A stretch of 55,634 nucleotides of DNA. It comes from a virus. Within the stretch, counting starts at the first letter, position 1; each line of letters opens with the position of its first letter. The stretch is taken from IMG/VR virus record IMGVR_UViG_3300049215_000047, positions 1-55,634 of that record, one strand, 5' to 3'. This document shows, piece by piece, positions 9,130-21,777 of this stretch. The position numbers and the translations under genes are program-made. The notes under the pieces are model-generated. The model ran no database searches and was not told where the DNA came from. It worked only from the letters and a program-made list of their open reading frames with translations.

Positions 9130-9181
9130 ATACTTGCGATAATCGCAAATTAGGTCAAGCGGGAAATTGCTAAAAGCGCAA
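9130..9181 (-). promoter_or_regulatory. Left early promoter with two operators
   Basis: On the minus strand a -35 TTGACC (9158-9153) and a -10-like AAGTAT (9135-9130) are 17 bp apart. Between them lies the palindrome TTGCGATAATCGCAA (9134-9148), so bound repressor would block RNA polymerase. A second, weaker site TTGCTAAAAGCGCAA (9167-9181) is centred 33 bp away, about three helical turns. The sequence from -35 to beyond -10 is nearly the same as in the right promoter at 10336-10365. Confidence 0.75.
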
Positions 9182-9230
9182 ACTTATTTTTAAGGGTTAG
9201 CGCGCTGTTAAGCGCGCGCGTCCCCGATTT

Positions 9231-9389
9231 GTACCTTGGGACACGGTGGGTACGGGTACTAGCTACAAATGGGGGCCTCTAATGAGGCCCCTTTGCTGCC
9301 GAGTATTAAAGAAGCCGCGCGCTCGAGCGCGCGTAGCAACGGACGTGCCATGTACCCGGTTTGCACCCACGGCGTACCCGCGTGCACCC
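9231..9389. repeat. GyACCC repeat array, gap region
   Basis: The gene-free gap 9182-9413 holds repeated words GTACCC or GCACCC. Four in direct orientation start at 9352, 9363, 9374 and 9384, spaced 11, 11 and 10 bp, one helical turn each. Two inverted copies (GGGTAC) abut at 9248 and 9254, and a variant GTACCT is at 9231. The same words form the array at 21477-21745. The even phasing suggests a protein lining up on one face of the DNA. Apart from this, the hairpin at 9272 and the palindrome at 9316, I see nothing else in the gap. Confidence 0.6.
9272..9291. terminator. Hairpin, probable terminator
   Basis: Perfect 8-bp stem GGGGCCTC / GAGGCCCC with loop TAAT in the gene-free gap. Tails are TTTG on one side and ACAAAT on the other, so a T-tract is short in either direction. 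It is best placed to end leftward transcription coming from the repressor and small membrane protein genes. An 18-bp perfect palindrome centred on CTCGAG (9316-9333) lies 25 bp to the right. Confidence 0.5.
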
Positions 9390-9413
9390 GTAAATAAAAT
9401 TATGTGGAGAGTT

Positions 9414-9623
9414 TTAATTTGAGGTCGCGATGACCCAGATGACTACGCACACGAGCGCAACAATACCGACAGCCAGAAGTCGACCCATAAAAAGCACCCC
9501 ACTGGCGAAAGCGGTATCAACGGATGCCCAGAGCCGCTTAGGCAATAACAGTTTGATAAAGCCCCGAAAGAACAGCAGGGCAATGGCAATGCAAACTCCG
9601 GCGATGATAGCTGCTAACATCAT
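9414..9623 (-). CDS. Small two-helix membrane protein beside repressor
   Basis: 69 aa with two membrane helices (about 2-24 and 44-66) joined by a basic loop (FIKLLLPKRLW). The start overlaps the repressor stop in ATGA, so it is co-translated with the repressor and would be made in the lysogen. Small membrane proteins made from the prophage often act in superinfection exclusion; that is an inference from position and topology. Confidence 0.7.
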   Translation of the reverse strand: MMLAAIIAGVCIAIALLFFRGFIKLLLPKRLWASVDTAFASGVLFMGRLLAVGIVALVCVVIWVIATSN

Positions 9624-10279
9624 AGGTCGTGGATTACGCGTCGGACGCGTCCTACAATTTCGACGTTGATCCTTTTCTCAATCGGCCCAGGCCGGTGCTC
9701 AGGATTGGTCGAGCGCGGCAACATGAAGGGCGGTTTGCCTTTTTGGTATTCCTTAAAAGTGGTCTGCCCTTTGACCGAGAAAATGTAGGAATTGCCGCTG
9801 ATCGGGTTCCTCTCGCGATGGTTCACGATAATAAGCGAGCCTTCGGGGGCGACCAAATTCATACTGTCCCCGCGCACGCGCGTCGCAAAAAACTCTCCTG
9901 GACCCAAGTCCTCGGCAAAAACATGGTCAAGGCGAGTCGTGGGTATATCGACGTCCAGATCGGCAAATTTGCCGGCGTTAACCCATGAAATGATGGGGAT
10001 GCCTGGTCGGCCTCTCCGCGCCGTCGGGTTTCCCAATTCAGCAGCCACATCCTCCGAACCAAGTTCTGGTTGCTGAATAGCCTCGAAGCCAGGCGGCGCT
10101 TCTTTGAAGAACTCCGCGATTTCGTTCCATTCGAGAGGTTTTATATTCCTCTCGCCCCTTAAAATCTTGCTGATTTTGTCCTGAGTTAGGCTCGTCGCGC
10201 GAGCGAGGTCGCGCTTCGCGTCGCGCGGCGCGGTTTTGTTCTTAAACCAAGCTAACTGCAGGCGCTCCGACGGTGCCAT
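9620..10279 (-). CDS. CI/LexA-type phage repressor (HTH + S24 peptidase)
   Basis: 219 aa. The N-terminal helix-turn-helix (about 20-58) contains LARATSLTQDKISKILRGE. The C-terminal domain (about 95-219) is a LexA/CI autoprotease fold: cleavage pair Ala102-Gly103 in SWVNAGK, nucleophile Ser139 in VRGDSMN, general base Lys176 in QTTFKEY. It should hold the prophage silent by binding the TTGCGATwATCGCAA operators and fall apart by RecA-stimulated self-cleavage after DNA damage. The chosen ATG at 10279 directly follows the operator at 10290; upstream in-frame sequence is operator DNA. Its ribosome site is weak, which fits low-level expression. Confidence 0.93.
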   Translation of the reverse strand: MAPSERLQLAWFKNKTAPRDAKRDLARATSLTQDKISKILRGERNIKPLEWNEIAEFFKEAPPGFEAIQQPELGSEDVAAELGNPTARRGRPGIPIISWVNAGKFADLDVDIPTTRLDHVFAEDLGPGEFFATRVRGDSMNLVAPEGSLIIVNHRERNPISGNSYIFSVKGQTTFKEYQKGKPPFMLPRSTNPEHRPGPIEKRINVEIVGRVRRVIHDL

Positions 10280-10289
10280 TCGGGCATCA

Positions 10290-10370
10290 TTGCGATTTCC
10301 GCAAAAATTAATATCGCAATCATCGCAAGCCGCCATTGACATCAATTTGCGATTATCGCAATTATGCAGC
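10290..10370 (+). promoter_or_regulatory. Right early promoter with three operators
   Basis: Operator-like palindromes: TTGCGATTTCCGCAA (10290-10304), TCGCAATCATCGCAA (10314-10328) and the perfect TTGCGATTATCGCAA (10347-10361), centres 24 and 33 bp apart. A rightward -35 TTGACA (10336-10341) and a -10-like AATTAT (10360-10365, 18-bp gap) bracket the third site. The start of transcription would fall at or within a few bases of the Cro-like ATG at 10371. Sites one and two abut the repressor start and probably control its own leftward transcription. Confidence 0.75.
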
Positions 10371-10607
10371 ATGACGACAGCCGCCGAGAACGTGATTGCC
10401 AAATGCGGAGGCCATCAGGCCGTCGCCGACATGCTCGGGGTCGATATTTCGCGCGTTTATCGATTTACCTACCCGAAAGAGCGCGGCGGTACTGACGGTC
10501 ATATCCCTTCGAAGCATCAGGGGCGCCTTCTGGAAGAGGCGCGCAAGCGCGGCCTCAAGCTGAGGCCTGCAGATTTCTTCGCACCATCCGTTAGCGCCGG
10601 TAATTGA
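10371..10607 (+). CDS. Cro-like DNA-binding protein
   Basis: 78 aa. Helix-turn-helix near the start (GHQAVADMLGVDISRVYRF) followed by YPKERGGTDGHIPSKHQGRL and a short helical end. Being the first rightward gene, divergent from the repressor and directly under the shared operators, it is the expected Cro, which lowers repressor synthesis during lytic growth. The ATG is only about 6 nt from the -10, so the transcript may be leaderless or nearly so; no ribosome site is visible. Confidence 0.8.
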   Translation: MTTAAENVIAKCGGHQAVADMLGVDISRVYRFTYPKERGGTDGHIPSKHQGRLLEEARKRGLKLRPADFFAPSVSAGN

Positions 10608-10617
10608 GGGCGTGACC

Positions 10618-11178
10618 ATGCCGCGATTGTGCCCGGCGATGCCGAAATCCGCGAATTGCCGGGGTGCCAAAATGGGCGCCGGAAATGCCGGAACGGGTAC
10701 GATCTCGGAACTGATCGCCGAGTGCCTAAAGAACATTTTCCACGAGAAAACATGGGCTTCGGTCGAGAAGCTTTTGTGGCCGGGGCAAGAGCGCGAGCGT
10801 CTTGCCAAGCATCGCCTTGCGGCGACGCGCGACTTCACCGTTGACGAGCTCGCGACGCTTCTGCGTTCCGAGCACGGCTTCACCATTCTCTCCGCGATCA
10901 TGACCGACGCGCGGCCTGGATGGTGGCGGCTTTGTATGCCGCTGATGCAGGCCGCCGACGCGCGCAAGCTTCAGCGCCAGGCTCAAGCCAAGATCGCTCG
11001 CGCGCTGAAAGGAGCGCTCGATGCCGACGACGATCTCAGTGCCTCCATCGCGAGAGCGGAGGCTGCCTTTTCTGTTCAGGATGAGGAATTCATGCGCCCG
11101 CACCTTGATGGTCTGCGCGCGCAATCTGGCGCACTTCATCGCGCCATGGCTTCGAAAACCAAAGGACCGCGCCGATGA
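10618..11178 (+). CDS. Hypothetical early protein
   Basis: 186 aa from ATG 10618, which has GAGGG 7 nt upstream (GTG 10612 is the alternative). Helical protein with EKLLWPGQERERLAKHRLAA, a possible winged-helix region FTVDELATLLRSEHGFTILS, and a conserved-looking ARPGWWRLCMPLM. It overlaps the next gene by 4 nt. From position right after cro it may regulate early transcription or replication; no family name can be given. Confidence 0.75.
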   Translation: MPRLCPAMPKSANCRGAKMGAGNAGTGTISELIAECLKNIFHEKTWASVEKLLWPGQERERLAKHRLAATRDFTVDELATLLRSEHGFTILSAIMTDARPGWWRLCMPLMQAADARKLQRQAQAKIARALKGALDADDDLSASIARAEAAFSVQDEEFMRPHLDGLRAQSGALHRAMASKTKGPRR

Positions 11179-11837
11179 GGATTGAGGTAGTGGCCGCGGA
11201 AAGCTTCGAGGGGCGGCTCCGCCGCGAGGCGCGCGAGCGCAAGATGAAGTTCTTCGGGCCGCGGGTCGCGGCTCCTGAACCGGCGTCACCGGTTGTCCCT
11301 GTCGACGCAACGGCCGCACCCACGTCACCGCATAATGCGGTGGTTGCTGAGGCTCGCAAGCTTGCGGGCGAATTGCTGCCCGGCCTGACGCGCTCGCTCT
11401 CGACGATCGACATCGAAACGGGAAAGCATCGGCCGAGCCTGCAACTGATTATTGCCGCGTGCGCGAGGCAGGCCGGTTTGACGGTTCCCGAATTGCTGGG
11501 GTTCAGGCGGACGGCTGTCGCCCTATTGCCGCGCCAGATCGGAATGTATCTCGCGAAGAAAATGACTCTGGCGTCGCTGCCCGAGATCGGGCGCCGGTTC
11601 GGCGGTCGCGATCATACGACTGTTCTGCGCTCGGTCGCCAAGATCGAGCGGCTGCTACCGCGCGATGCCGATCTAGCCGCGCGCGTGGACCTCATCAAAA
11701 AAGATATCGAGAACGCGGTCGAGCAAGCCGCGCGCGCACCCATTGCGTCTCACCTAGCAACCAAGGGGCTTGATCATCATGAAACAATCACGACGCCGGC
11801 GCGGGAAGCGTCCGGCAAAGAAGCCTTTCGCGCTTAA
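11175..11837 (+). CDS. DnaA domain IV-like DNA-binding protein
   Basis: 220 aa. Residues about 85-165 match the DNA-binding domain IV of the initiator DnaA: IIAACARQAGL, PRQIGMYLAKKMTLASLPEI, and the signature FGGRDHTTVLRSVAKIE (about 142-158), where the GRDHTTV loop contacts the DnaA box. The AAA+ ATPase part of DnaA is absent; residues 1-80 are an unrelated charged and Pro/Ala-rich region. It could bind DnaA boxes to start phage replication, compete with host DnaA, or regulate genes. The ATGA overlap fixes the start. Confidence 0.85.
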   Translation: MRIEVVAAESFEGRLRREARERKMKFFGPRVAAPEPASPVVPVDATAAPTSPHNAVVAEARKLAGELLPGLTRSLSTIDIETGKHRPSLQLIIAACARQAGLTVPELLGFRRTAVALLPRQIGMYLAKKMTLASLPEIGRRFGGRDHTTVLRSVAKIERLLPRDADLAARVDLIKKDIENAVEQAARAPIASHLATKGLDHHETITTPAREASGKEAFRA

Positions 11838-13273: not shown

Positions 13274-13623
13274 CCAGGCCGGGTTGGTTCGAATGGACAA
13301 CCGAGCGCGTCACGAGGGTGATGGAGATTGCCGCGCGCGGCGGCACCGCGCGCGAGGCCTGTGAGGCCGTCGGGATCGAGCCGGAGCGTGAGCATCTTGT
13401 CTACCGGCTGGCGAAGCAGCGCGGCTTCAAGTTCCGGAATGTCGGGCGCAAGCGCAACGATACTCGGCTCTACATCAATATCGACGAGCTCACGTCGCAC
13501 GAGCTCACCGCGCGTGCGCGCCAGCACAATCGGCCGCGCCGCGATCTCGCTGCCCGGCTTCTGGCGATCGTCCTCGCGCAGGGTCCGACCTTCATCGACA
13601 ACCTCCTGAGCGAAGACACATGA
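13270..13623 (+). CDS. HTH-containing regulator
   Basis: 117 aa. The N-terminal half (WTTERVTRVMEIAARGGTAR, EACEAVGIEP, LVYRLAKQRGFKFR) has the spacing of a helix-turn-helix of the type in GcrA-like and DUF-class phage regulators, ending in a basic KFRNVGRKRND. The C-terminal helices (ARQHNRPRRDLAARLLAIVL) may dimerise. It overlaps the primase gene by 4 nt. DNA binding is probable; target unknown. Confidence 0.65.
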   Translation: MTRPGWFEWTTERVTRVMEIAARGGTAREACEAVGIEPEREHLVYRLAKQRGFKFRNVGRKRNDTRLYINIDELTSHELTARARQHNRPRRDLAARLLAIVLAQGPTFIDNLLSEDT

Positions 13624-15728
13624 GCGCGGCCGAAAGCGATCTCGCGCAGCTTGCCGAGCCAGTTGCGCGCCAACTTTTCGGCGAGCCGAACGCGCGCTTG
13701 TCGCGCAAGGGCGAACTTAGGTTCGGCTCTAACGGATCGTGGTCGGTCGACCTAGCGAAGGGGACCGTCTATTCGCACGAACTAGGGGAAGGCGGCGGCG
13801 TTCTTTGGCTCGTTGAAAAACAAACCGGCTTGACGGGCGCCGAGCGCTTCGACTGGCTGCGCCAGAACGGCTTTGACCTACCGCAACGCGACGGCGCGAA
13901 GGTGCAATCGCGCATCGTCGAGACCTACGACTACACGGACGAAGGCGGCAATCTGCTGTTCCAGGTCTGCCGCCTTGAGCCGAAGTCGTTTCGCCAGCGC
14001 AAGCCGGACGGTCGCGGCGGCTGGGAGTGGACAGTCAAAGGCGTCCGCCAGGTGCCCTACAAGCTGCCGGAGGTCACGGAGGCGATCGCCCTTGGCCGGC
14101 AAGTCGCCATTGTCGAGGGCGAGAAGGACGTGGAGCGGTTGGCCCGCAACGGCATCGTGGCGACATGCAACGCCGGCGGCGCCGGCAAGTGGCCGGACGG
14201 TTTCGGCGAATTCTTCACGGGCGCCGAGGTGCTGCTGATCCCCGACAATGACGAAGCCGGCGAGGCGCACATGGCGCTGGTCGGCACAGCGCTCGATGGC
14301 GTCGCGACCTCGGTGCGCATCCTGCGGCTCAAGGGCTTGCCGCCGAAGGGCGACGTGTCGGATTGGTTCGACAAGGGTGGCAAAGCCGACGAGCTTGGCG
14401 CGCTGATGGCGAGGGCGCCTGAATGGCTGCCGCCAGCCGCCGGCTTTGCGTCACGGCTTGGCGCCGTGCGCTTCCGCGATCTCGACCTGCCCGGGCCCGA
14501 ACATGACTACCTGATCAAGGGCATTCTGACCCGCGGCGAGCGCAGCCTGCTTGTCGGACCATCGGGCGCCGGCAAGTCATTCGTCGCCACCGATCTCTCA
14601 TGGTGCGTGGCCACCGGTTCGGAATTCCTCGGCCGACGCGTACGGCGCGGGCTCGTCGTCTATCAGGCGGGCGAGGGCGCGCGCGGATTGAAGAAACGCC
14701 TGCGCGCGATCCGTAAGGAAAAGGCCGTCGATCCTAATCAGAACGTCCCTTTCGTGCTGCTGACGTCGCCGGTCGATCTGTATGCCAGCGATGCGGACAC
14801 GCAGGCATTGATCAAGGAAATCGACCAATGGTCTTCGCTTTACCGCGCCGAAGAGAACGTGCCGCTTGAGCTCGTGGTCATCGACACGCTCTCGGCGGCA
14901 ACGCCCGGCGCGAACGAAAACGCCAGCGAGGATATGAGCAAGATCCTCACGCGCTGCGCGCTGATCGCCAAGCACTGCAATTGCCACGTCATGCTGGTGC
15001 ACCACCTTAACGCTGCGGGATCGAAGCCTCGCGGGCATTCCTCGCTCTTTGCGAACATCGAGAACGCGATCGAGGTTGCCATCACCGAGCGCACCGTGAC
15101 GGTCGAGCGCGCCGACGGCTCGACGTTTCAGCGGCCGGTGCACAGCGCCAAGGTGACGAAGCAGAAGGACGATGAAAGCGGAACGGCTTGGGACTTCGCG
15201 CTCAAGCGCGTCGTGCTCGGCAAGGATATGGACGGCGACGATATCAGTTCGTGCGTCGTGGTCGGGACGAAGGATGACGGCGAGGTCACCGTCGCCGGCG
15301 CCGAGCGCACGAGCGGCGAAGGCAAGGGCGGCTTCAAGCTGACGAAGCAAGAGGGGATGTTCTTCGAGTGCGTCCTCGATGCGCTGGCCGAGCATGGGAT
15401 CAATCCGCCGCCGCCCCTGCAACTGCCGGAGAGCATCGGCAAGGTGGTCGATTACGAGCATGTCAAGGCGATGATGACGCGCAGGATGCTGCGCGAGGAC
15501 GACAATACCGAGGACGGCCGCAAGCGCCATCGCGAACGGCTCAAGAGCGCGTTGCGCCGGGCGCGCGAGACGCTGACGAAATACAAGATCGTCGGCACCG
15601 ACTCTCCATATATTTGGCACACAGGGAAGCCAGTTCGCGGATTTGAACAGACGCAGCCGCGCCGTCGCGATCTCGTGACGCGCGCGGAAGCGCCGGCCGA
15701 TGACACCGACCTTGGGGAGTTCGCGTGA
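13620..15728 (+). CDS. Primase-helicase-like protein (toprim + RepA-type ATPase)
   Basis: 702 aa. Residues about 1-90 resemble a primase entry domain without zinc ligands. A toprim domain follows, with Glu166/Glu168 in VEGEKD and Asp209/Asp211 in IPDNDEAG. From about 290 there is a RepA/DnaB-type ATPase: Walker A GPSGAGKS at 313-320, Walker B LVVIDTLSA near 415, and the histidine motif VMLVHHLN near 460. The C-terminus (about 560-702) is helical and basic. It should prime and unwind DNA for phage replication. It overlaps genes on both sides, and is the main replication enzyme visible in the window. Confidence 0.88.
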   Translation: MSAAESDLAQLAEPVARQLFGEPNARLSRKGELRFGSNGSWSVDLAKGTVYSHELGEGGGVLWLVEKQTGLTGAERFDWLRQNGFDLPQRDGAKVQSRIVETYDYTDEGGNLLFQVCRLEPKSFRQRKPDGRGGWEWTVKGVRQVPYKLPEVTEAIALGRQVAIVEGEKDVERLARNGIVATCNAGGAGKWPDGFGEFFTGAEVLLIPDNDEAGEAHMALVGTALDGVATSVRILRLKGLPPKGDVSDWFDKGGKADELGALMARAPEWLPPAAGFASRLGAVRFRDLDLPGPEHDYLIKGILTRGERSLLVGPSGAGKSFVATDLSWCVATGSEFLGRRVRRGLVVYQAGEGARGLKKRLRAIRKEKAVDPNQNVPFVLLTSPVDLYASDADTQALIKEIDQWSSLYRAEENVPLELVVIDTLSAATPGANENASEDMSKILTRCALIAKHCNCHVMLVHHLNAAGSKPRGHSSLFANIENAIEVAITERTVTVERADGSTFQRPVHSAKVTKQKDDESGTAWDFALKRVVLGKDMDGDDISSCVVVGTKDDGEVTVAGAERTSGEGKGGFKLTKQEGMFFECVLDALAEHGINPPPPLQLPESIGKVVDYEHVKAMMTRRMLREDDNTEDGRKRHRERLKSALRRARETLTKYKIVGTDSPYIWHTGKPVRGFEQTQPRRRDLVTRAEAPADDTDLGEFA

Positions 15729-18529: not shown

Positions 18530-18958
18530 CGATCATCGATGATGACTACAAGCGCGAGCTCGATCGCATCCGCAAGCTGCCATGGACCGCGCAATTCCAT
18601 AAGACGCTCGAAAACAAGTCAGTGCCGGGCGGCTTCGTCGATATGTACGTTTTGCTCGACGACGACAGCGGCGAAACATTGGTTACGCTGGCCGTGCCGA
18701 AGGGCTTCCATGCTCTCGCGGAGTACGTCGCCGGCTGCTGCGCCGATCCGTTTTTCGTGCGATTGCGCGTTCTATCTCGCCGACTATCTGAGGTTCGATC
18801 GGATGGAGGCCTTGGCCTGGACCGTGACGACATTGCGCGATCGCGTGCGAGGCGGATGGAAATGCGCCGAAGAAATCAACAACGCCGATGCTGCGCGCGC
18901 GATGACGTGCGTGCTACTGAAGGGCAAGATCGCACAGCTTGAGGGTGCGCCGGTATGA
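18526..18958 (+). pseudogene. Frameshifted conserved hypothetical gene
   Basis: The ATG overlaps the ATPase stop (ATGA) and the TGA overlaps the next start (ATGA), but the 433-nt span is one base more than a multiple of three. The first frame reads sensibly to ADPFF (about 18756); thereafter the next frame does (FYLADYLRFDRMEALAWTVT, AEEINNADAARAMTCVLLKG). Removing one T from the TTTTT run at 18751-18755 joins them into one 143-aa protein. This is a recent +1 mutation, a sequencing slip, or a programmed shift. Function unknown. Confidence 0.75.
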
Positions 18959-19914
18959 GCGACCGCGTTGCCAAGGCGCAAGCCGCTGCCGACAAGTGGG
19001 CCGCCAAGGTCGAAGAACGGCGCGCGCACCTCGCGGCGCTCCAAGCGACCGCTGCCGACAGCCGGCGGCTCGACAAAGCGGCGGTATCGTTGGCCAAGGC
19101 CGAGGCGCGGCTGATGGCGGTCCGCGCCAAGCTGCGGAAGGCGCTCAACGCCGCCGCCGGCGACGCATCGATGCTGCGCCGGCTCGATCGCATTGCCGAG
19201 CTCGCGCCGGCGACGATGCAGCGTTGGAAGTACGAGCGCGAGCAAGAACCCAAGCGCATCGAAAAGCGCAAAAAACACCTGAAGCGTGTGACGACAAAGG
19301 ATCTTCGCAATGATCCGACCCACCGGCGCGATCGCCGCTCTCACAAGATGTTCGGGGTTGCCGCATATGCCGCGCCGGTCGAAGCCGCCACCTTCCCGAG
19401 CGGACCGATCATTCCCTACACGCCACCACCATCGATGCCTGCCATTAACCGGCCCGGGCTTCTCGCCGGCGACTATCGGCTGATCGACAAGCCACCGAGC
19501 GATATCATCGGATGGCGCGCGCCAAAGGAATGGACCGCCGAATATGTCGGCTCGCGCATGGTCGAAGCGCATTCGACGTTGCGGCGGCTGCCGATGACAA
19601 CGCGGCCAAAGGAATTCGGCGGCATCTGGCCGGAATATCGTCACGAGGGCGTTGAACTTGCATATCAAGCCGGATCGGGGACGCTCTTCGTCGGGAAGCG
19701 CACGATCATGGGGACCGCCGGCGCTGCGCTCTCGCGAACGAATGAAGCCTTGGCATGGATATTGGAGTTTCTTGCTGATCAGCCAGTGTACGCGCGTGCT
19801 GTCAACGTATGGGCGTCCTCGCATGACGTTGACGACGACATCGATGGCTTTGTCCGCGAAGCACTCGAATTCATCGCCGCCAAGCTCAACGCCAAGAAGG
19901 CGCCGGTGACGTGA
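18955..19914 (+). CDS. DUF6362-type regulator-like protein with coiled coil
   Basis: 319 aa. Residues 1-125 are a basic coiled coil (AKAEARLMAVRAKLRKAL, RKKHLKRVTTKD). After a Pro-rich link, residues about 185-290 contain WTAEYVGSRMVEAHSTLRRL and FGGIWPEYRHE, then NEALAWILEFLADQ, the pattern of DUF6362 proteins of alphaproteobacterial phages, which look like small sigma-like or HTH regulators. Being the last large early gene before the late region, it is a candidate late-gene activator. Overlaps neighbours by 4 nt each. Confidence 0.65.
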   Translation: MSDRVAKAQAAADKWAAKVEERRAHLAALQATAADSRRLDKAAVSLAKAEARLMAVRAKLRKALNAAAGDASMLRRLDRIAELAPATMQRWKYEREQEPKRIEKRKKHLKRVTTKDLRNDPTHRRDRRSHKMFGVAAYAAPVEAATFPSGPIIPYTPPPSMPAINRPGLLAGDYRLIDKPPSDIIGWRAPKEWTAEYVGSRMVEAHSTLRRLPMTTRPKEFGGIWPEYRHEGVELAYQAGSGTLFVGKRTIMGTAGAALSRTNEALAWILEFLADQPVYARAVNVWASSHDVDDDIDGFVREALEFIAAKLNAKKAPVT

Positions 19915-20654: not shown

Positions 20655-21197
20655 ATGAAACGCCGCGACCGCCTTGCAGCACACTTCATCCGCGCCTCAG
20701 ACCTGCGAGCGGTCTATCTCGCCTCGGCGGGCCGCACGGTAAGGCTCGGCATCACGCGCGATCCCGTCGCCAAGGCGCGCGAGCTCAAGCGCCAACGCGC
20801 CAAGCTGCACCAGGTCTATTGGCTGGCATCGAGCGCGGCCGCGGCGCTGCTGCTGCGCGCCGCTGCCGAGGCTTTCCCCGGCATCGATCGCGGCGCCAAG
20901 GTCCGCGCGGCGAGCGTCGAAGATGCGTTGCCAGCGCTGGCTCAGGATTATGATCTGGCCATCACGCCCGAGGCGGTGGTGCAGGAGCGCGCCGCAGCCG
21001 CGGTTGCCGACATCGATCGCCGGGTGAAGGCGATGCAAGCGTCCGGCCACTTGCGCGGGCTCACCGGCCAATATCGTCAGGCGCGCATGGAAGCCTCGCG
21101 CACCGGCGCGCCGTTCATGTCGTACGGCGACTATCTAGAGCGCTACAAGATCAAGATGCTCTACCAAATCGCCGACGCGCTGAAGGCGGCGTCGTGA
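20655..21197 (+). CDS. GIY-YIG/Mug113-like domain protein
   Basis: 180 aa. Residues 18-70 (AVYLASAGRTVRLGITRDPV, KARELKRQRAKLHQVYWL, LLRAAAEAF) follow the layout of GIY-YIG-type or Mug113-like domains: VYL strand, a variant of KIGxTxDP, and a late Glu helix. The exact catalytic tyrosines and arginine are not all there, so activity is doubtful. The C-terminal half is helical (AAAAVADIDRRVKAMQASGH). Last early gene on the plus strand. Confidence 0.5.
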   Translation: MKRRDRLAAHFIRASDLRAVYLASAGRTVRLGITRDPVAKARELKRQRAKLHQVYWLASSAAAALLLRAAAEAFPGIDRGAKVRAASVEDALPALAQDYDLAITPEAVVQERAAAAVADIDRRVKAMQASGHLRGLTGQYRQARMEASRTGAPFMSYGDYLERYKIKMLYQIADALKAAS

Positions 21198-21460
21198 TTT
21201 TTCACGTGAAACACTAGCGCTGCACGTTGCGCTGGCCCCAGGCGATCAGCGCCGGGCCATCCTTCGTCGGCATCGGGATCGACCGTATCGATCACGCGCG
21301 CCCCATGGCGCAGCGTCAAATATCGGTCTGGCCGGATTAGCTTCGCAGCCACAAACGCCGCCTTCGCGACCGCCAGATGCGAGGCTTCGGCCAGTAATTC
21401 GGTGACGTGAAGCGCCTCCGCGTCCCATTCCTCGATCCTGAAAAGCAGGTCGCCGGCCAA
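21161..21460 (-). CDS. Hypothetical protein, opposite strand
   Basis: About 99 aa if it begins at TTG 21460 (GGGGACGGGAAC upstream) or 112 aa from GTG 21499. The body is protein-like with good codon use: LFRIEEWDAEALHVTELLAE, ASHLAVAKAAFVAAKLIRPD, LTLRHGARVIDT. It reminds me of a small conserved alphaproteobacterial protein of unknown role. It overlaps the end of the plus-strand gene by 37 nt, and its start lies beside the repeat array at 21477, which may control it. Confidence 0.55.
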   Translation of the reverse strand: MAGDLLFRIEEWDAEALHVTELLAEASHLAVAKAAFVAAKLIRPDRYLTLRHGARVIDTVDPDADEGWPGADRLGPAQRAALVFHVKNHDAAFSASAIW

Positions 21461-21476
21461 GTTCCCGTCCCCGTTT

Positions 21477-21777
21477 GTACCCGTCGGGGCGAAATGCACC
21501 CGCGAAATGTACCCGGCAAATCGGCGACGCAAATTCCGAGTGAGCGTTCTGCCACAATTCGAGCGGGTACATTTTCGCCGAGTTATACAATGTACCTCTG
21601 ACACTGTGACACTCGGAAAGCGCACCGGATGAAATCAGTAAAATGCCTCGATGATTATTGATCGCCTGACGCGATCAGCACCACACAGAACACCGGTGCA
21701 AACGGGTACATTTCGGGTGCAAAGTCACAGTGTCACTCTGTACCCGTTTGACAAGCCTGTGGAAAACACGTTTTCTA
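21477..21777. promoter_or_regulatory. Late control region: repeat array and promoter candidate
   Basis: Tandem 13-mers CGAAATGCACCCG (21490-21502) and CGAAATGTACCCG (21503-21515) sit back to back; the second recurs inverted at 21703-21715, with close variants at 21564-21577. Further cores: GTACCC at 21477 and 21740, and phased inverted copies starting 21694, 21704, 21715. An 11-bp inverted pair GACACTGTGAC lies at 21600-21610 and 21724-21734. A rightward -35 TTGACA (21748-21753) with a weak -10 near 21771-21777 follows, and TGTGGAAAA (21759-21767), one base off a DnaA box. This likely drives the late genes and needs an activator. Confidence 0.6.

What the first reader, a model, noticed from the sequence alone, without database searches (positions are those of the whole stretch)
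21477..21777. Array of CGAAATGyACCCG repeats upstream of late genes, echoed 12 kb away
The gap holds two abutting 13-mers (21490-21515), the same 13-mer inverted at 21703-21715, more GTACCC/GCACCC cores in both orientations, phased 10-11 bp, and an 11-bp inverted pair GACACTGTGAC. The cores end just before a TTGACA promoter element. The core recurs in the empty gap at 9231-9389, again phased. This is organised like operators or activator sites of an unnamed protein, perhaps the DUF6362-type, DnaA IV-like or HTH protein of this phage. I know no described phage system with this motif.
Basis: partly seen in the sequence, partly recalled or inferred. Interest (0 to 1): 0.72.

Follow-up and report, generated by a model that had tools for sequence, protein, structure and literature searches.

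The report
Replication-origin repeats in a temperate phage
Two clusters of the short repeat TGYACCC in this temperate phage are real, and they look most like the repeats (iterons) that mark where a virus starts copying its DNA rather than switches for its late genes; this is a common kind of element, here in an unusual two-cluster layout.

Summary
The array is real. TGYACCC occurs 21 times in the window against 7.4 expected. Ten copies lie in the two short gaps at 9.2 and 21.5 kb, and no simulated genome reaches the density of the second gap. The true unit is WWTGYACCCG; the 13-mer is only its best form. The arrays are probably not operators of a late-gene switch. The S24 repressor has its own operators (TTGCGATNATCGCAA). 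The DnaA-like protein keeps a DnaA recognition helix. The closest phage by late genes encodes a DUF6362 protein but has no array and a DnaB-type replication module. Other phages sharing this late module carry different arrays at the same place, next to a different replicative helicase. An unbiased scan for TGYACCC arrays found them mostly inside or beside phage replication genes: 65 of 120 contigs at HTH_36 initiators, 9 at helicases related to the window's primase-helicase (13620-15728). In 30 of 68 relatives of that helicase an iteron-like array starts within 600 bp of the gene's 3' end. Array 1 has 10-11 bp phasing and an AT-rich flank; array 2 holds the window's only DnaA box. Best reading: two clusters of replication iterons, P4-like in layout. 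The binder is unproven, and a second role at the late promoter is not excluded.

The parts
9228..9391 (.). Array 1: seven GYACC(C) cores, order + - - (hairpins) + + + +; right half phased 11/11/10 bp
9272..9291 (.). Hairpin GGGGCCTC-TAAT-GAGGCCCC between the two halves of array 1
   Evidence: sequence; compare the hairpins between iterons in L106, L170, L171 and L177
9316..9333 (.). Second perfect palindrome CGCGCGCTCGAGCGCGCG between the halves of array 1
9392..9431 (.). AT-rich stretch abutting array 1 (70% AT, second highest 40-mer in a 37% AT genome): candidate unwinding element
21474..21746 (.). Array 2: TGYACC(C) sites at 21476+, 21495+, 21508+, 21571-, 21591+, then 21700-, 21710-, 21721-, 21739+, plus weaker GCACC cores
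21630..21669 (.). Relatively AT-rich centre (62%) between the two halves of array 2
21600..21610 (.). Left arm of the 11-bp inverted pair (GACACTGTGAC); role unknown
21724..21734 (.). Right arm of the 11-bp inverted pair (GTCACAGTGTC)
21748..21753 (+). TTGACA, a possible -35 element, 1 bp after the last core of array 2; no consensus -10 found
21758..21766 (-). Only DnaA-box consensus (TTWTNCACA: TTTTCCACA) in the window
13620..15728 (+). Toprim + RepA-like (AAA_25) primase-helicase with a predicted winged-helix C-terminal domain; best candidate as iteron binder
11175..11837 (+). DnaA domain IV-like protein; expected to bind DnaA boxes, not TGYACCC
18955..19914 (+). DUF6362-like protein (33% over 85 residues to the G001 protein that matches Pfam DUF6362)
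9620..10402 (-). S24-type repressor
9134..9148 (.). Repressor operator OL: TTGCGATAATCGCAA (perfect palindrome)
10290..10361 (.). Repressor operators OR at 10290, 10314 and 10347; the last lies inside the rightward promoter 10336-10365

Best explanation
The two arrays are clusters of replication iterons. A phage initiator binds the repeated WWTGYACCCG sites cooperatively along one face of the helix and opens the AT-rich DNA beside array 1 (9392-9431) and possibly in the middle of array 2 (21630-21669). The RepA-like primase-helicase 13620-15728 is loaded there and primes synthesis; host DnaA, or the phage's DnaA domain IV protein, may help at the single DnaA box beside array 2. The primase-helicase itself, through its predicted C-terminal winged-helix domain, is the likeliest binder. 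Two clusters 12 kb apart flanking the replication genes resemble the ori + crr pair of phage P4 (P4 ori/crr recalled from memory). Shown: the arrays, their phasing, the AT-rich flank, the DnaA box, the helicase family, and the association of such arrays with this helicase family and with phage replication genes generally. Inferred: origin function, the identity of the binder, and the cooperation of the two clusters.
For: Array beyond chance. Array 1 abuts the second most AT-rich 40-mer, and the only DnaA box lies at array 2; phased iterons, an A+T-rich region and DnaA sites are the described anatomy of iteron origins (PMC5043065). A gene-blind scan for three TGYACCC in a row returned 120 IMG/VR contigs: 65 have an HTH_36 initiator N-terminal domain within 1 kb (iterons inside that gene) and 9 a helicase related to 13620. 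Phages with TGTACCC arrays directly 3' of their primase-helicase (L067, L074, L090, L106, L118, L153) share, within the loci held, only that gene with the window. Of 68 further helicase relatives 43 have an array and 30 have it within 600 bp of the gene's 3' end, with related cores (TGTCCCG, TGTCCCA, TTTACCC, GTACCCT). Convergent iterons around a hairpin recur in L106, L170, L171 and L177 and resemble array 1. Another phage (L334) has TGTACCCGG repeats between its primase-helicase and terminase genes, the same place as array 2. Among phages sharing the late module the array follows the replication module: DnaB phage no array, SF3/D5 phages other arrays at the same place. The AlphaFold model of residues 271-702 of 13620 (mean pLDDT 84.7) ends in a winged-helix-like order H306-322, E339-341, H342-353, H361-384, E388-391, E394-397. 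Precedents: SaPI and SCCmec helicases bind iterons directly downstream of their own gene through a C-terminal domain (PMC7581432); P4 alpha binds origin repeats through a winged helix (PMC4234260).
Against: In the window neither array is next to the helicase gene (about 4.2 kb upstream and 5.7 kb downstream). The close helicase relatives L181, L183, L184 and L186 and Mae-JY30 (L168) show no array beside the gene; Mae-JY30 has only four TGTCAC in its early/late gap. The shared TGTACCC core in helicases only 22-28% identical could be convergent, since cores change quickly in this family. GC skew shows no clear switch at either array. Array 2 ends 1 bp before a TTGACA, as an activator site might. 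No relative with both arrays was found.
Confidence: 0.64

Rival explanations
1. Array 2 is an activator array for the late promoter: a phage regulator (DUF6362-type, as GafZ/GafA in gene transfer agents, or an HTH protein) binds the TGYACCC sites and recruits RNA polymerase at the TTGACA 21748; array 1 is a second target near pL.
For: The last core lies 1 bp before TTGACA and further cores lie about two to three helical turns upstream of it; the promoter has a good -35 and no good -10, as activated promoters often do. The phage encodes both a DnaA domain IV protein and a DUF6362-like protein; RcGTA GafA has a DnaA-like N-terminal DNA-binding domain and its functions are split into two genes in Hyphomicrobiales (PMC9638019), and GafY and GafZ activate and antiterminate the Caulobacter GTA cluster (PMC11150451).
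Against: G001 has the same late module and a DUF6362 protein just upstream but no array. TGYACCC arrays elsewhere sit at replication genes. Nothing in this reading needs the AT-rich flank of array 1.
Confidence: 0.17
2. Same origin reading, but the iterons are bound by a separate initiator (the DnaA domain IV protein 11175, the HTH protein 13270 or another small early protein), which then loads the primase-helicase, as RepC does for RepA in RSF1010.
For: The best solved relative of 13620 is RSF1010 RepA, whose iterons are read by the separate RepC (PMC4234260). The arrays are not beside the helicase gene. DnaA domain IV is a known origin-binding fold.
Against: The DnaA-like protein keeps the host DnaA recognition helix and is absent from the TGTACCC-array records searched. 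The HTH protein 13270 has no match in the TGTACCC-array loci.
Confidence: 0.12
3. Array 2 is a packaging (cosB-like) or partition site.
For: It lies upstream of a lambda-like late module with terminase genes.
Against: The terminase large-subunit gene starts 2.4 kb further on, with several genes between; array 1 lies near the repressor, 15 kb from the terminase; lambda cosB has three R sites (from memory), not about ten in both orientations.
Confidence: 0.04
4. Chance or compositional repeats.
For: The 13-mer with 3 mismatches is not enriched.
Against: The core clustering exceeds all 1000 simulated genomes.
Confidence: 0.01

Closest known systems
Phage P4 alpha protein with ori and crr
   Same: Toprim primase fused to a hexameric helicase with a predicted C-terminal winged helix; short iterons; two iteron clusters far apart (crr from memory)
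   Different: P4 alpha helicase is of the SF3 type (from memory), this one is RecA-like (RSF1010 RepA type); other iteron sequence
SaPI Rep / SCCmec Cch2 replicons
   Same: Short iterons beside or near the helicase gene, read by the helicase's own C-terminal domain (PMC7581432)
   Different: Other helicase family; in the window the arrays are several kb from the gene
RSF1010 RepA/RepC oriV
   Same: Same helicase fold (PDB 1g8y); iterons
   Different: RSF1010 uses a separate initiator, RepC, and a separate primase
Lambda O-type in-gene origin
   Same: Other phages carry TGCACCC iterons inside an HTH_36 initiator gene
   Different: In the window the arrays lie mostly outside genes and no HTH_36 protein was recognised among the early proteins scanned
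GafA / GafY-GafZ activation of gene transfer agents
   Same: DnaA-like and DUF6362-like proteins are both encoded; a possible late-gene promoter lies at array 2
   Different: No array in the DUF6362-bearing relative; the paper found it difficult to predict a GafY motif (PMC11150451)

Membership tests
Iteron-type replication origin | Several short repeats of one sequence, phased with the helix | tested here: met
   11/11/10 and 10/11 bp spacing
Iteron-type replication origin | Adjacent AT-rich unwinding element | tested here: met
   9392-9431 abuts array 1; array 2 has only a modest AT-rich centre
Iteron-type replication origin | DnaA box at the origin | tested here: met
   single TTTTCCACA at 21758-21766, the only consensus box in 55.6 kb; about one is expected by chance in the whole window
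Iteron-type replication origin | Cognate initiator that binds the repeats | tested here: inconclusive
   primase-helicase 13620 is the only gene shared with the TGTACCC-array loci held; binding untested
Iteron-type replication origin | Supports autonomous replication | not testable with these tools
   needs a plasmid assay
P4 / SaPI-type self-recognising helicase replicon | SF3 (D5-like) helicase | tested here: not met
   Pfam AAA_25, RSF1010 RepA fold
P4 / SaPI-type self-recognising helicase replicon | C-terminal winged-helix origin-binding domain | tested here: inconclusive
   winged-helix-like secondary structure in the model; a fold made from the domain alone had low confidence; binding untested
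P4 / SaPI-type self-recognising helicase replicon | Iterons directly downstream of the helicase gene | tested here: not met
   arrays lie 4.2 kb upstream and 5.7 kb downstream of 13620-15728; met in 30 of 68 relatives
GafYZ-type late activator system | DnaA-like plus DUF6362-type proteins encoded | tested here: met
   (the DUF6362 link is remote)
GafYZ-type late activator system | Array conserved upstream of late genes in DUF6362-bearing relatives | tested here: not met
   G001 has DUF6362 and no array
Repressor operators | Motif matches the palindromic operators flanking the repressor gene | tested here: not met
   operators are TTGCGATNATCGCAA

The most novel reading that the evidence does not exclude
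One iteron-binding replication protein couples genome copying to late gene expression: bound at array 2 it both acts at an origin and sits at the -35 of the late promoter, so that late genes switch on only when origin DNA and initiator have accumulated.
Probability: 0.13. Interest if true: 0.62.

Novelty: new member of a known kind. Interest (0 to 1): 0.37.

Why it matters
If right, it places candidate origins in an uncultured temperate phage. It also suggests a usable rule for phages with RepA-like (AAA_25) helicases: in nearly half of the relatives examined a fast-evolving iteron array starts just 3' of the helicase gene. That makes origins in many metagenomic phages predictable, and iteron-helicase pairs testable. 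It also warns against reading such arrays before late genes as late-gene operators.

Tried and rejected
Searching for close relatives of the DnaA-like and DUF6362-like proteins in viral contigs gave none. Their tblastn in phage records gave none for the DUF6362-like protein and only distant DnaA domains for the other. Host-genome hits of the DnaA-like protein turned out to be host DnaA. Relatives by genus could not be drawn because the window is a virus record. The S24 repressor as binder was rejected by its own operators. The DnaA-like protein as TGYACCC binder is disfavoured by its unchanged recognition helix. The 7-mer scan with one mismatch was too noisy to be useful. Folding the C-terminal domain alone from a single sequence gave a low-confidence model and was not searched. 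GC skew does not point to either array. A search with the extended motif mostly returned chance pairs; its real arrays were HTH_36 genes (L288, L317, L328; by reading also L306) and one primase-helicase gap, L334. The DUF6362 family search in array-bearing phages is uninformative because its controls did not ring. Literature searches for P4 crr in the held library found no dedicated paper.

Full report
What is there. The window is a whole IMG/VR virus record of 55,634 bases: a temperate phage with a lambda-like head module (terminase, portal, protease, decoration, capsid), an S24 repressor, a serine-recombinase-like gene and a tRNA-Met at the left end, and an early rightward operon. The reported repeats are real. 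Exact CGAAATGYACCCG occurs three times, all in the 21.5 kb gap. The meaningful unit is TGYACCC: 21 copies against 7.4 expected, 10 of them in the two gaps. Seven in 280 bp are never reached in 1000 order-3 Markov genomes (maximum 3); three in 165 bp at 9.35 kb are reached in 2 of 1000. Neighbouring cores are 10 or 11 bp apart in both arrays.

What does not bind them. The repressor has classical operators of its own: TTGCGATAATCGCAA at 9134 (left) and three copies at 10290-10361 (right), the last inside the rightward promoter. The DnaA-domain-IV protein 11175-11837 keeps the recognition helix of host DnaA almost unchanged (GGRDHTTV against GGRDHSTV; its genome hits are full-length host DnaA), so it should read DnaA boxes. 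The window has a single box of consensus TTWTNCACA, at 21758-21766, on the right edge of array 2. The DUF6362-like protein 18955-19914 is a remote relative of the G001 protein that matches Pfam DUF6362. G001 is the closest phage found by late genes (portal 75% identical; structural-gene DNA about 66-73% identical). Its DUF6362 gene lies just upstream of its late genes, yet that gap and the whole genome lack an array. G001 replicates with a DnaB-type helicase.

A natural comparison. Phages sharing the late module fall into three classes. The window has a RepA-like primase-helicase and TGYACCC arrays. G001 has DnaB and no array. L031-L033 and L036-L037 have, at the same place before the late genes, other arrays (TGGTCCA in 7-8 copies; TCCCTAG in 6); in those read in detail (L032, L033, L036) the array lies close behind an SF3/D5-type helicase gene. 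The array follows the replication module, not the late module.

What such arrays are elsewhere. In 65 of them an HTH_36 initiator domain lies within 1 kb, with the iterons inside the initiator gene in those read, as in lambda O; 9 have a helicase related to 13620. The rest include chance hits and coding repeats. In L067, L074, L090, L106, L118 and L153 the TGTACCC array begins directly after a Toprim + AAA_25 primase-helicase gene, and that gene is the only one of all window ORFs with a match in these loci. The related phages Idiomarinaceae 1N2-2 (TGTACCG, 8 copies) and Alteromonas PB15 (TGAACCA, 8 copies) show the same layout. A profile search brought 78 relatives of the helicase; of 68 examined, 43 carry a strong array and 30 have it within 600 bp of the helicase's 3' end, with cores such as TGTCCCG, TGTCCCA, TGCAACA, TTTACCC, TTTGCCC and GTACCCT. 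A recurring detail is convergent iterons around a hairpin (L106, L170, L171, L177). Array 1 has the same order, minus-minus, hairpins, plus-plus-plus-plus, though with a longer middle. L334, found with the window's extended motif, carries TGTACCCGG repeats in the gap between its primase-helicase and its terminase genes, the position of array 2.

Mechanism. The anatomy is that of iteron origins as reviewed in PMC5043065: phased repeats, AT-rich DNA (9392-9431, 70% AT in a 63% GC genome), and a DnaA site. The helicase is closest to RSF1010 RepA by sequence and fold. The AlphaFold model from 17 sequences ends in a helix-strand-helix-helix-strand-strand order typical of winged helices, the kind of domain with which P4 alpha reads its origin repeats (PMC4234260); SaPI and SCCmec helicases read iterons just downstream of their genes with a C-terminal domain (PMC7581432). 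I therefore take the arrays to be iterons of the phage replication origin, most likely read by the primase-helicase itself, with two clusters as in P4 (ori and crr, from memory). The binding and the origin function are inferred.

Weak points. The arrays are not beside the helicase gene, and several of the nearest helicase relatives have no detectable array there. Mae-JY30, the nearest one in named phages (41% over 96%), has only four TGTCAC in its early/late gap, more than 300 simulated genomes gave. Cores evolve quickly, so identity of the core between remote relatives may be convergence. Array 2 touches a TTGACA with no consensus -10, so an additional or exclusive transcriptional role remains possible; the GafA/GafYZ precedent (PMC9638019, PMC11150451) makes this the main rival. 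The roles of the GACACTGTGAC inverted pair and of the minus-strand ORF 21161-21625 are not explained.

Verdict. Real, more than chance, and best read as replication iterons: a new member of a known kind with an unusual two-cluster layout.

Noticed in passing
9134-9148; 10290-10361: Clear OL/OR set of the S24 repressor: TTGCGATNATCGCAA palindromes, one inside the rightward promoter TTGACA-18-AATTAT at 10336-10365.
   Followed up: yes
50-126 and 83-1678: A tRNA-Met gene at the left end overlaps the end of a serine-recombinase-like gene; possibly the attachment site.
   Followed up: no
11175-11837 and 18955-19914: DnaA domain IV protein and DUF6362-like protein encoded in one early region, reminiscent of the GafY/GafZ pair; may regulate late genes independently of the array.
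   Followed up: partly
21600-21610 and 21724-21734: 11-bp inverted pair GACACTGTGAC / GTCACAGTGTC, each arm with its flank containing TGTCAC; the related phage Mae-JY30 has four TGTCAC in its early/late gap.
   Followed up: partly
L105, L049, L056, L121, L107, L065, L306 and others: TGCACCC iterons inside HTH_36 initiator genes, encoding KGA-like peptide repeats in several; widespread in phages.
   Followed up: partly
L181-L258: Family rule: an iteron-like array starts within 600 bp of the 3' end of RepA-like helicase genes in 30 of 68 loci, with diverse cores.
   Followed up: partly
L048:10212-10509: TGTACCC array just upstream of a tyrosine integrase-like gene; possibly arm-type integrase sites, unrelated to replication.
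   Followed up: no
L168/L176 (PP438422.1): 'Microcystis phage' Mae-JY30 has a lambda-like head module and the nearest relative of the window's primase-helicase among named phages; its stated cyanobacterial host looks doubtful.
   Followed up: no
21161-21625 (-): 154-codon minus-strand ORF overlapping the left half of array 2; no family match.
   Followed up: partly
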